Below, in pieces: positions 1 through 43,721 of a stretch of DNA of 43,785 nucleotides. Every line of letters starts with the position of its first letter. Position 1 is the stretch's first letter. The stretch comes from Desulfovibrionaceae bacterium (GTDB taxonomy: Bacteria > Desulfobacterota > Desulfovibrionia > Desulfovibrionales > Desulfovibrionaceae), in assembly GCA_015709205.1 (NCBI GenBank), contig JACCQO010000027.1:1-43785 (forward strand), written 5' to 3'. Below the pieces are notes generated by a model. The model was not told the DNA's origin and did no database searches. It saw only the letters and a list, made by a program, of their open reading frames with translations. A program made the position numbers and the translations under genes.

Positions 1-175
1 CCCCCCTCCACCCCACCTCTCCCCCAAAAACTGCTGGTTGGATGAGGAAGGGGGTAATTTTTGAGTGCCCGTGGATGCCGGACGGGTGGGTACGGGCGCG
101 GGCGCTCGGGAAAGATGGGGAGCGGAGCGAGCTTGCCGGGCTGCCGCCGCCTTTGGCGGCGGATGCGCCCTGGGG
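1..175 (+). repeat. Left copy of a ~175-bp inverted repeat
   Basis: This stretch is a diverged inverted copy of 43548-43721. Both copies share the core ctgctggttggatgagg, a run around tttttgagtg, and the block gccgggctgccgccgc followed by ggcggcggatgcgccctggg. By eye identity is roughly 80-85 percent, with small indels. The block at 141-162 forms a GC-rich hairpin (ccgccgcc, ttt, ggcggcgg). Overlapping open frames run across it, but they differ between the two copies and resemble no protein, so I read it as non-coding intergenic repeat DNA. It lies at the very edge of the window, so the true outer limit is unknown. Confidence 0.75.
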
Positions 176-270
176 CGTGCGGGAAAGAGGGGGAGGATAC
201 GACGTTACGGGGGTCGAGCGCGGGCGGGGGAAAGCCGTCACGGACGTCGCAACACCGACGACCGCGAAAA

Positions 271-823: not shown

Positions 824-982
824 CCGCGCCCGGACCAATCCAATCAGACTCTATCGGTCAATACGCCTTTTATGAAACAAGTTAAGGCAACACACCTATC
901 AATGACTTATCGCAAACCCCAATACAAGAACTTATCAAGAAATAAAAAACGCACTCCGTCAGTCGCAAATTTATTTCCTTTA
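824..982. other. Intergenic, left edge of the AT-rich island
   Basis: Base composition changes abruptly from GC-rich to AT-rich at about 830-870. I see no terminator with a T tract and no convincing gene; a short plus-strand frame starting at 872 runs into the opposing membrane-protein gene and has no ribosome binding site. Confidence 0.5.
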
Positions 983-1510
983 CTACAACCTATCAAATTT
1001 GCTTCTATAAAATACAATATCACGCATCAATACAGATGTGTCTGCAGTCTGCCATAACGAATACAAGACACAGCCTATGCTCACTCCTAACGCTATTTTT
1101 ATATAGAATTCATCACTAAAATTTATCACAATAATTGCAGAAATAATTAGAACAATTAAAGAGAATACACCTACAACCTGAAAATACTGAATAAAAAAAA
1201 GATAATACTTGAGGACATTATTGTCAGCCAAAAATTTGGAAAATCCTGGTGAAGAAATATTTTGAATGACATGCTGAATAGCATTTGTAGACATCCCAAG
1301 CATAATGCCTTGGGCAGTAACTAACCCGGTAATCAGGATAATATATTTATCGGCTTTATCTATGGTAATATGAAAAAAGGAAGTTACAGAAATTCCAGCA
1401 ACAATACACGCCAAAATTTTCCATGGAAAAAGAGAAAAATACCTCTTTTCCTTAAAGTCCGCGACAAGGCACTGCCGCAATAGCCCTAAAAAACTAAGGC
1501 GTTTTTCCAT
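983..1510 (-). CDS. Predicted four-helix membrane protein of the AT-rich island
   Basis: A 175-residue protein that I do not recognise. Four hydrophobic segments are visible at about residues 28-48, 54-74, 103-130 and 135-156, separated by short polar loops; the second loop (about 76-100) is the longest. A basic, polar N-terminus (MEKRLSF, then DFKEKR) and a charged C-terminus (YRSKFDRL) flank them. There is no signal peptide and no known catalytic motif. The ATG lies 17 bp inside the 3' end of the upstream gene, with tagaga just before it, which suggests translational coupling and joint function. Composition and codon use are AT-rich, unlike every surrounding gene, which indicates horizontal transfer. 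A pore-forming or membrane-anchoring partner is possible but not demonstrated. Confidence 0.75.
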   Translation of the reverse strand: MEKRLSFLGLLRQCLVADFKEKRYFSLFPWKILACIVAGISVTSFFHITIDKADKYIILITGLVTAQGIMLGMSTNAIQHVIQNISSPGFSKFLADNNVLKYYLFFIQYFQVVGVFSLIVLIISAIIVINFSDEFYIKIALGVSIGCVLYSLWQTADTSVLMRDIVFYRSKFDRL

Positions 1511-2378
1511 AAATCTCTAAAAGCGTTTTGGCAACGGCTTGGACATGTGCTTCTTTAGAAGACATTGGAGGAACAAACACTTTAATCCTCGGCGGCTTCC
1601 TACTCTCTGGAGCCGTTTTCTCGATTCTCGCATGATACCCATCGACCGTTGTGCCGACAGTACCATATTCGCCATAGCCTCTGTCGGCGAGCCCTGTCAC
1701 CTCATTCATTAATCCTTCTTCAGAAAATGTAAGGTGGTCACCTTTATTTGGCTTTTCTTTACCCATCACTTTTGCATTATCAGGGCTAAGCAAACTATGC
1801 AGCTTGTCCCCAGGAGTTTTAACAGAGGGGTTAAAGGGACGCACTGTAAAAGAAAATTCATCGAGTTGCCAATTTTTTAAAGCCTCTCGCAAATATTCAT
1901 AGCTTGCAGCAGACTCTATGCTTATAGAGTGAAGAGGGATTTCCCTCACAATGGCTCTAAACCTATTTGTTGATGATTTAGCATTCATATCTTCTTGTGA
2001 TGATCTATCAGAGGCTGCCAGAAGTCCTAACAGTGGGATCATTACAATATTACCGACAAGATATTCATCTGCCGCGACGCTTTCCCTACTCAATATATCA
2101 GCTGATTTATCATATTTAATTGCTTTTCTTGAATCAATATGCTTTGCAATAGAAAAATAAAGAACGTCAACAACTTCACCATTGCTATCATTTAAAATGG
2201 TTGTCTTATCGGGTGTAATTATACACGTATCTCTATCTTGCTCTGTAGGACTCGTTTTTCTGTATGCTATCTCTCTGCCCAAATTATCCAAAAGCAAATC
2301 CCACTGCTCAGACGTTGTAAGTAAAACGTCGACGCATGAAAGTGAATAAGAGTAGAAAATATAAGGAGTATTGTTCAT
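1494..2378 (-). CDS. Unrecognised soluble protein, first gene of the AT-rich island
   Basis: A 294-residue predicted cytoplasmic protein starting MNNTPYIFYSYSL. I chose the ATG at 2378 because gagaggg lies just upstream; a further in-frame start exists at 2408. There is no signal peptide and no membrane helix apart from a short hydrophobic patch (IVMIPLLGLLAA, about residues 117-128). Motifs that could anchor a search are NAKSSTNRFRAIVRE (about 138-152), FTVRPFNPSVKTPGDKL (about 183-199) and GYGEYGTVGTTVDGY (about 237-251). I cannot assign a family. It overlaps the membrane-protein gene by 17 bp. The AT-rich composition is foreign to the window. Accessory, possibly anti-phage, function is an inference from layout and composition only. 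Confidence 0.8.
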   Translation of the reverse strand: MNNTPYIFYSYSLSCVDVLLTTSEQWDLLLDNLGREIAYRKTSPTEQDRDTCIITPDKTTILNDSNGEVVDVLYFSIAKHIDSRKAIKYDKSADILSRESVAADEYLVGNIVMIPLLGLLAASDRSSQEDMNAKSSTNRFRAIVREIPLHSISIESAASYEYLREALKNWQLDEFSFTVRPFNPSVKTPGDKLHSLLSPDNAKVMGKEKPNKGDHLTFSEEGLMNEVTGLADRGYGEYGTVGTTVDGYHARIEKTAPESRKPPRIKVFVPPMSSKEAHVQAVAKTLLEIYGKTP

Positions 2379-2598
2379 TTTCCCTCTCAGAAGTTTTTTG
2401 CCGCGCAAGCGCTAGGCCTATCCAATCTATTTGTTATTAAATATATACGGGGCATCCATTTGTCAATCAAAACTCTAGCATCAGCTATCTACCCAACTCT
2501 GTGAGTAAATTATGTATTATCTCTGGCCCTTGCCTTACTAGCAAGCCTCTACCCTATTATAAATTGTAACTTGCTTTTTATACAGCACTTATTCATCC
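2379..2598. other. AT-rich intergenic between dgt and the island genes
   Basis: About 220 bp without a gene. It holds the candidate promoter listed separately. On the minus strand it also holds a perfect TATAAT at 2556-2561 with only a poor -35 (tgtata) at 17-bp spacing, which could give a longer leader. I see no clear terminator for dgt. Confidence 0.5.
2438..2466 (-). promoter_or_regulatory. Sigma-70-type promoter of the island genes
   Basis: On the minus strand a consensus -35 TTGACA (2461-2466) is followed after 17 bp by TATTTA (2438-2443). Transcription would start about 50 nt before the ATG at 2378. The island therefore appears to carry its own promoter. Confidence 0.6.
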
Positions 2599-3945
2599 CT
2601 AGAACCCCAGCCCGAGCAGTTCGCGGCACAGGTTCGTGGCGTACTGGTCCGTCATGCCCGCCACGTAGTCCAGCGCCGTCAGGAGCACGTTGTAGGGGCA
2701 GCGCGTCTCGTCGCGCAAGGCCTTGTCCACCAGTTCCTTGCCCAGCAACACGCGCACGTGGCCGCGGGTCTGCGACGGCGAGTCCGTGCAGAACCGGCCC
2801 ACCTCCGCGATGATCCGGTCGAGCAGCGCGCGCACGGCGTTCTGCGCGCCGAGCTCCAGAATGGCCTTGCGCCGCGACAGGAACAACTGCTCCCCGATGC
2901 CCTTATAGACATCGACGATGGCGCGGCAGATGTCGCTGTCCGCCGCCTCCAGCAGGCTGCGCGGCGCGCCGTCCTCCCGGACCATCGTCCCGGTCATGAT
3001 GGCCTCGTGGTTCGCCCGGAAGGCCTCGGAGCAGCCGAGGATCGCCCCGTGCACCAGCTTGGCCCGCAGGATGCTGTTGCGCTGCCGGAAATGCTGGTCC
3101 TTGTACCGGGCGTAGCGCTCGGCGTCGGCCGCCGTGATCCCCAGCACCTCGCCGAACCGGGCGAGCATGAAGTCGGCATCGAGCAAATGCAGTTCCGTGG
3201 CGTCCTCGATATCTATTATACGATAGCAGATGTCGTCGGCCGCCTCGGTCAGGTAGGCGAGCGGGTGGCGGGCGAAGCCACGGCCGCGCCCGGGCAGGCC
3301 CAACGCGGCCGCCGTCGCCTCCACGGCCTCGCGTTCCGCCTCGAAATAGCTGAACTTGTCCTTGCGGGCCGCGCCGGATGGCCAGGGGTACTTGAGCAGC
3401 GCGCCCAGCACGGAGCGCGTGGGGCTCATGCCTTCGCCGTAGAATCCCGTGCTCAGCAGGATGCGCACGGACATGGCGTTGCCGTCGAAGCGCGTGAAAT
3501 CCGTGCGCCATTCGTGGCGCACGCCCGCCAGCGCCTCGGGGTTGGCCTCGAACCAGTTCTTGATGGCCGTCTCGCCGCTGTGGCCGAAGGGCGGGTTGCC
3601 GATGTCGTGCGCCAGGCAGGCGGCCTGCACGATCTCCCCGAGGTGGTGGGGCCCGAACCCTTCCGGCAGCTCGCCCCGCCCGTCCAGAAAGCACCCGGCG
3701 GCCTCGCCCAGGCTGCGGCCCACGCTGGCCGTCTCCAGGCTGTGCGTGAGCCGCGAGTGGATGTGGTCGTTCTCGTTCAGCGGGTGCACCTGCGTCTTGC
3801 GCGCCAGCCGCCGGAACGGGTCGCAGAAGAGAATCCGGTCGATGTCCCGCTGGAAGGCGCTACGCGGGTCGCCGGAAGAAGTCGGCCTGCCGACGCGCTC
3901 CGCCGAGATCAGCCGCTCCCATTGCATTCGTTCGCTCGTCGCCAT
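2599..3945 (-). CDS. dgt: Deoxyguanosinetriphosphate triphosphohydrolase-like HD-domain protein
   Basis: A 448-residue cytoplasmic enzyme of the dGTPase family, which splits dNTPs into deoxynucleoside and triphosphate. HD-superfamily metal ligands are visible: histidine 68 in RLTHSLE and the HD pair at 113-114 in CLAHDIGNPPFGHSGE. The preceding CDPFRRLARKTQV segment is also typical. The frame is open further upstream, but the ATG at 3945 is preceded by aaggacgg at proper spacing and begins where family homology begins. It is transcribed away from the cupin gene and stops just before the AT-rich island. dGTPases regulate dNTP pools and some restrict phage; whether this one cooperates with the neighbouring island is speculation, since the composition of dgt matches the chromosome. 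Confidence 0.93.
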   Translation of the reverse strand: MATSERMQWERLISAERVGRPTSSGDPRSAFQRDIDRILFCDPFRRLARKTQVHPLNENDHIHSRLTHSLETASVGRSLGEAAGCFLDGRGELPEGFGPHHLGEIVQAACLAHDIGNPPFGHSGETAIKNWFEANPEALAGVRHEWRTDFTRFDGNAMSVRILLSTGFYGEGMSPTRSVLGALLKYPWPSGAARKDKFSYFEAEREAVEATAAALGLPGRGRGFARHPLAYLTEAADDICYRIIDIEDATELHLLDADFMLARFGEVLGITAADAERYARYKDQHFRQRNSILRAKLVHGAILGCSEAFRANHEAIMTGTMVREDGAPRSLLEAADSDICRAIVDVYKGIGEQLFLSRRKAILELGAQNAVRALLDRIIAEVGRFCTDSPSQTRGHVRVLLGKELVDKALRDETRCPYNVLLTALDYVAGMTDQYATNLCRELLGLGF

Positions 3946-5925: not shown

Positions 5926-7566
<1,641 letters not shown>

Positions 7567-43413: not shown

Positions 43414-43547
43414 ATCCCTTCCTCCCTGCATCAGGTTGATTTCCATTCCGTCCGCGCCATCCCAGGACGGCGCGACACCAGCATTGCACCCTAACGCGCC
43501 CGCCCGCGCCCCGCAACGCCCTTCCCACCCACGCCCTCTCCCTTTCT

Positions 43548-43721
43548 CCCCAGGGCGCATCCGCCGCCAAGCGGCGGCAGCCCGGCAAGCCCGCTCCGCC
43601 CTCCATCTTTCCCCCTCGTCCCGCGCCAACACCACCCCGTCCGACATCCACGCGCACTCAAAAATCACCCCCGTCCTCATCCAACCAGCAGTTTTTGGGG
43701 GAGAGGTGGGGTGGAGGGGAG
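43548..43721 (-). repeat. Right copy of the ~175-bp inverted repeat
   Basis: Inverted partner of 1-175, about 43.4 kb away. Position 43712 corresponds to 10 and 43553 to 170. The hairpin core (ccgccgcc, a, agcggcgg) is conserved with a small indel relative to the left copy. It lies beyond the promoter side of the small four-cysteine gene; no coding capacity is credible. Confidence 0.75.

What the first reader, a model, noticed from the sequence alone, without database searches (positions are those of the whole stretch)
824..2598. AT-rich two-gene island: soluble protein plus four-helix membrane protein
The composition changes sharply inside an otherwise very GC-rich chromosome. The island holds two genes that overlap by 17 bp and carry their own TTGACA promoter. 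One is a 294-residue soluble protein with distinctive motifs (RPFNPS, GYGEYG), the other a 175-residue protein with four predicted helices. A sensor or effector coupled to a membrane partner is a common plan in phage-defence pairs. No transposase, integrase or att-like repeats are visible, so it may be an isolated cargo pair. Neither protein is recognised, so a new defence or accessory system is possible but unproven.
Basis: partly seen in the sequence, partly recalled or inferred. Interest (0 to 1): 0.7.

Follow-up and report, generated by a model that had tools for sequence, protein, structure and literature searches.

The report
Foreign two-gene island, possibly Rex-like
A small piece of foreign, AT-rich DNA carrying one soluble-protein gene and one membrane-protein gene sits between two ordinary genes of a GC-rich bacterium; its layout matches two-gene phage-exclusion systems such as RexA-RexB, but sequence alone does not prove the link.

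Summary
Bases ~824-2598 are the only stretch under 50% GC in the 43.8-kb contig and hold two intact overlapping minus-strand genes: A (2378-1494, 294 aa, soluble) and B (1510-983, 175 aa, four hydrophobic helices). GC3 is 0.34 and 0.32 against 0.93-0.94 in the flanking genes. In searches of 289 family and 395 phylum genomes A found only itself, and nothing in plasmids, phages, viral or GTDB contigs. The flanking genes look like ordinary core genes; no tRNA or end repeats.

The plan, a ~290-aa soluble gene directly upstream of a ~175-200-aa four-helix membrane gene, is that of DUF4747/RexAB exclusion pairs: 15 of 16 DUF4747 loci fetched here have a membrane gene immediately downstream. B weakly resembles those partners end to end (0 of 234 membrane decoys and 1 of 300 shuffles score as high). 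A passes no DUF4747 or RexA test (30 of 588 decoys score as high), though lambda RexA hardly does better (17 of 588).

Best reading: a horizontally acquired, very divergent RexAB-type abortive-infection pair, probability ~0.4. It may work like one; it is not filed as a member. No function was tested.

The parts
824..2598 (.). AT-rich island between two convergent GC-rich host genes
   Evidence: only stretch below 50% GC (300-base windows) in the window
1494..2378 (-). gene A: 294-aa soluble protein, no recognised family; candidate sensor
   Evidence: single-sequence AlphaFold2 model useless (mean pLDDT 37.5)
983..1510 (-). gene B: 175-aa protein with four hydrophobic helices; candidate membrane effector
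   Evidence: (helical, pLDDT 69.7); weak full-length resemblance to the membrane partner of DUF4747 proteins
1494..1510 (-). 17-bp overlap of the end of A with the start of B (translational coupling inferred)
2382..2388 (-). SD-like GAGAGGG, 3 bases before the ATG of A
   Evidence: read
2461..2466 (-). TTGACA, candidate -35 element upstream of A; no good -10 at standard spacing

Best explanation
A horizontally acquired, very divergent two-gene phage-exclusion (abortive infection) module that works like RexA-RexB and the DUF4747 pairs: A is a cytoplasmic sensor that is activated by an infecting phage (DNA, a DNA-protein complex or a phage protein) and then opens B, a four-helix membrane channel, so that the membrane depolarises, ATP falls and the infection aborts. 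Shown here: foreign DNA, two intact coupled genes, soluble-then-membrane order, four hydrophobic helices in B, and a weak full-length similarity of B to the DUF4747 partner family. Inferred: everything about sensing, channel function and defence.
For: Same plan, size and order as DUF4747 pairs: L044 (298 + 173 aa), L045 (287 + 205), L047 (287 + 201), L048, L049 and 10 of 11 viral loci have a membrane gene directly downstream, i.e. 15 of 16 fetched loci; the exception, L058, ends about 0.5 kb after the DUF4747 gene. DUF4747/4TM pairs defend in mycobacteriophage Sbash, Gordonia phage CarolAnn and phage Butters (passages). B against the profile of 14 DUF4747 partners: end-to-end alignment, 0 of 234 membrane decoys and 1 of 300 shuffles as high; its possible relative in L032: 0 of 234 and 0 of 300; KwaA 182 of 234, lambda RexB 12 of 234. 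Foreign, accessory, isolated. Precedent: P. putida RexABpp was not recognisable by BLAST either (passages).
Against: A gives no significant match to any Pfam, PADLOC, NCBIfam or PHROG model; HHalign of A with RexA, DUF4747 and Toast/Butters profiles is no better than decoys; global alignment of A with DUF4747: 30 of 588 decoys and 52 of 300 shuffles as high. B's similarity is weak: 1 of 92 decoys in the second set and 6 of 1000 shuffles as high; HHalign gives nothing, apart from a short non-collinear B-RexB match (score 23.9, 0 of only 14 decoys as high) that I do not count. In the same tests lambda RexA/RexB and CarolAnn/Toast proteins do not recognise the DUF4747 profiles either, so these tests have little power. 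The possible relative of B in L032 stands alone, without an A-like partner. A fold test of A was not possible.
Confidence: 0.4

Rival explanations
1. A different, so far undescribed two-gene sensor/membrane-effector system of foreign origin (defence or other accessory role) with no common ancestry with Rex or DUF4747.
For: A is an orphan in every search made and no known family matches it; the four-helix plan is common among unrelated effectors; Kiwa and Rex proteins do not align with A or B.
Against: B's full-length resemblance to DUF4747 partners is better than all but at most 1 of the membrane decoys in each set.
Confidence: 0.3
2. Fragment of a decayed prophage or plasmid, two accessory genes left behind without function.
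For: AT-rich, isolated, no mobility genes or repeats at the ends; no relatives in 50,697 phage records or in IMG/VR by the scans made.
Against: Both frames are intact, with an SD-like site and an exact 17-bp coupling overlap; no other AT-rich DNA remains beside them.
Confidence: 0.15
3. A toxin with its membrane immunity protein, or a regulator with its membrane partner.
For: Two overlapping genes, the second a small multi-helix membrane protein, a plan also known for bacteriocin immunity proteins (recalled).
Against: No toxin or bacteriocin model matches A; A has no long hydrophobic hairpin.
Confidence: 0.12
4. A Kiwa (KwaA-KwaB) system.
For: Four-helix protein plus a ~300-aa soluble protein; G331 holds a true pair of 187 + 312 aa.
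Against: Gene order is the reverse; no PF16162 match in this genome; KwaA against B and KwaB against A find nothing.
Confidence: 0.02

Closest known systems
DUF4747 (PF15931) protein + 4TM partner pairs, such as L044, L045 and Acinetobacter plasmids (CarolAnn/Sbash-type systems in print)
   Same: Soluble protein of about 290 aa directly upstream of a four-helix membrane protein of about 175-215 aa, short gap or overlap, accessory distribution; B aligns end to end with the partner family.
   Different: A does not match DUF4747 by HMM or by my alignment test; the partner's conserved YGG, SPYLH, LPNLLGF and NAxFxHF motifs are not kept in B.
Phage lambda RexA-RexB
   Same: 279-aa soluble protein then 144-aa four-helix membrane protein on one transcript (RexB topology from passages).
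   Different: No significant sequence match of A with RexA or of B with RexB; not in a prophage immunity region.
Pseudomonas putida RexABpp (PP_5643-5644)
   Same: Soluble plus 4TM pair not recognisable by BLAST (passages).
   Different: There HHpred found RexA at 98% probability; no such match was obtained for A with the tools here.
Kiwa KwaA-KwaB
   Same: One four-helix protein and one soluble protein of about 300 aa.
   Different: Order reversed; no sequence match.

Membership tests
DUF4747/RexAB-type exclusion pair | Two adjacent genes, soluble protein first, four-helix membrane protein second | tested here: met
DUF4747/RexAB-type exclusion pair | Soluble protein matches PF15931 (DUF4747) or PF15969 (RexA) | tested here: not met
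   0 Pfam families at E <= 1; the RexA model does find lambda RexA; PADLOC none; profile comparisons 80, 105, 121; global test 127
DUF4747/RexAB-type exclusion pair | Membrane protein related to the DUF4747 partner or to RexB | tested here: inconclusive
   B vs DUF4747 partners: 0 of 234 decoys, 1 of 300 shuffles; 0 of 142, 1 of 92, 6 of 1000; HHalign nothing; RexB nothing usable
DUF4747/RexAB-type exclusion pair | RexA/RdgC-type fold of the soluble protein | tested here: inconclusive
   Single-sequence model of A has mean pLDDT 37.5 and was not searched
DUF4747/RexAB-type exclusion pair | DNA binding, membrane depolarisation, phage exclusion | not testable with these tools
   needs experiment
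Kiwa | KwaB (PF16162) downstream of KwaA | tested here: not met
Thoeris ThsA2 (TM + macro domain) | Macro domain behind the membrane segment | tested here: not met
   B has only a weak hit (E 0.0079, 13.6 bits) to the TM part and no Pfam macro domain; L032 relative has no hit

The most novel reading that the evidence does not exclude
A and B found a new family of two-gene sensor/membrane-effector immune modules, unrelated by descent to Rex, Kiwa or any catalogued system, spread as tiny AT-rich islands without mobility genes; the solitary B-like gene beside a tRNA-Pro gene in L032/L037 would be a second, single-gene form.
Probability: 0.22. Interest if true: 0.6.

Novelty: new variant of a known kind. 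Interest (0 to 1): 0.4.

Why it matters
If the pair is RexAB-like, this plan extends well beyond what RexA, RexB and DUF4747 models detect, and RexAB-type exclusion is undercounted in genomes outside prophages. If it is not, it is an untested two-gene accessory module small enough to clone and challenge with phages in one experiment.

Tried and rejected

RexA/RexB: BLASTP and HHalign no match. My first full-length scoring test seemed to show A matching DUF4747 (0 of 120 decoys). With more decoys (3 of 407, 2 of 181; 30 of 1000 shuffles) and a traceback it proved to be an end overlap of the profile's tail with A's head, and a global test gave 30 of 588. I dropped that claim. The by-eye match of A's DEFSFTVRPFNPS with the DUF4747 KxEIxIxKPNP segment is a lead only: the same collinear region (A 145-187) came out of HHalign, but 67 of 209 decoys scored as high. 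The second decoy set, called ATset, is mixed: only L104 is AT-rich (0.31), five loci are 0.45-0.48 and the other twelve are 0.60-0.67.

Empty site: none found. In the relatives' loci held, 24 had a thioesterase or dGTPase match and none had both. Dropped before counting: L046 (DUF4747 hit below cut-off with 3 stops), L050 (same contig as L051). L059 and L060 look like copies of one another; both are counted among the 11 viral loci, only L059 in the profile.

Full report
What is there. The window is a whole contig, G000:C14, of a 4.25-Mb, 120-contig genome. Near its left end two convergent GC-rich genes, a 4HBT thioesterase (398-823 plus) and an HD-domain dGTPase (2599 onwards, minus), frame an AT-rich island. 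The island is the only stretch below 50% GC in 300-base windows. It holds gene A (2378-1494 minus, 294 aa) and gene B (1510-983 minus, 175 aa), overlapping by 17 bp. GC3 is 0.34 and 0.32 against 0.94 and 0.93 in the flanking genes, and codon choice is foreign too. A has an SD-like GAGAGGG just before its ATG. A TTGACA lies upstream but without a good -10 at usual spacing. The ends share no exact word longer than 6 bases, and there is no tRNA in the window.

Surroundings. Of the 41 ORFs listed, I put ten to PADLOC and seven to Pfam. The rest I named by eye from recalled sequence features (GroEL/GroES, fatty-acid synthesis, riboflavin synthesis, LeuS, Lon and others). They look like core genes, so this does not look like a defence island. 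The one neighbour with a strong PADLOC hit is the dGTPase (E 2.7e-61). It has host composition, and that model cannot separate a housekeeping dGTPase from a defence dGTPase. It has matches in 6 of 39 other relatives.

Distribution. A: 1 of 289 family genomes, itself; 1 of 395 phylum genomes, itself (the sample overlaps the family); no relative in GTDB contigs or IMG/VR by peptide-pattern scans that find close relatives only; no tblastn match in 72,556 plasmid or 50,697 phage records at E <= 0.1. B: itself plus G648 (E 6e-4) and G447 (E 0.008) among 395 phylum genomes. These E-values are per genome, so about 0.24 matches as good as the first are expected by chance over 395, and a plain BLASTP of the G648 protein with B gives E 0.52. 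The G648 protein (L032) is 22% identical and shares GL-x-x-AQGI and FQVV. It is itself an AT-rich gene (GC 0.41, GC3 0.39) in a 0.68-GC locus, lies beside a tRNA-Pro gene, has no A-like neighbour and is missing from the 20 other genomes of its order. The alignment of both found nothing more in 287 family genomes except a short hit broken by a stop, nothing in IMG/VR; the two proteins found nothing in phages or plasmids.

What it looks like. Passages of papers describe RexA-RexB, Sbash gp30/gp31, CarolAnn gp44/gp43 and Butters gp30/gp31 as a cytoplasmic protein with a (weak) DUF4747 match plus a four-TM membrane protein; a 2026 paper describes a P. putida RexAB-type pair; another lists DUF4747/CarolAnn systems as immune operons in 17 of 443 capK loci. 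I therefore fetched DUF4747 loci: 2 of 198 phylum genomes over the cut-off, 3 plasmids and 11 viral loci. 15 of these 16 have a membrane gene directly downstream (for the five non-viral loci the helices were judged by eye and from alignment A7). Sizes match the window pair: 298 + 173, 287 + 205, 287 + 201 aa.

Tests of kinship. HHalign of A with RexA, DUF4747 and Toast/Butters profiles is no better than 209 decoys; lambda RexA against the DUF4747 profile is no better either (135 of 209), so that test has little power. A global profile test (profile of 15 DUF4747 proteins; decoys are fragments of ORFs from six other genomes and one plasmid) gave A 30 of 588 decoys and 52 of 300 shuffles as high; lambda RexA 17 of 588 and 38 of 300; KwaB 32 of 588; a held-out DUF4747 protein 0 of 588. 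So A is not shown to be related; it is about as far from DUF4747 as lambda RexA, and no nearer than KwaB. For the membrane partner (14 sequences): B 0 of 234 (tied at 28.7, to one decimal, with the best decoy) and 1 of 300 shuffles; the L032 protein 0 of 234 and 0 of 300; lambda RexB 12, Toast41 37, CarolAnn43 138 and KwaA 182 of 234. With free ends B was 0 of 142, 1 of 92 and 6 of 1000 shuffles; the L032 protein 0, 0 and 1 of 1000. The B alignment runs end to end (profile 1-180, B 12-175). This is suggestive, not proof: four-helix membrane proteins share composition.

Structure. The single-sequence model of B is a helical bundle (pLDDT 69.7) whose PDB and BFVD matches are unspecific. The model of A is useless (pLDDT 37.5).

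Conclusion. The best reading is a horizontally acquired, very divergent RexAB-type pair: A would sense infection and B would depolarise the membrane. The steps from anatomy to function are inference. Because the defining DUF4747/RexA match was tested and not met, I do not file it as a member of that family; 'works like' is kept at about 0.4.

Noticed in passing
window 3-226 and 43497-43719: The two contig ends carry an inverted copy of the same ~225-bp non-coding GC-rich repeat (83.7% identical); such dispersed repeats may be why the assembly breaks here.
   Followed up: partly
window 2599-3927: The neighbouring dGTPase gene matches the PADLOC dGTPase model (E 2.7e-61) and has matches in only 6 of 39 other relatives; host-like composition, role not decided.
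   Followed up: partly
L032 1456-1983 (L037 around 6402-7004): A solitary AT-rich (GC 0.41) four-helix gene, possibly related to B, lies beside a tRNA-Pro gene in a 0.68-GC locus of another family in the phylum.
   Followed up: partly
L044 876-2301, L045 1459-2945, L047 1486-2951, L048 1471-3015, L049 1483-3202: DUF4747 genes in bacterial genomes and plasmids each have a 4TM gene directly downstream; [quoted passage not shown]
   Followed up: partly
L039 603-2094: A KwaA-KwaB (Kiwa) pair in G331, the only PF16162 match in 247 phylum genomes.
   Followed up: no
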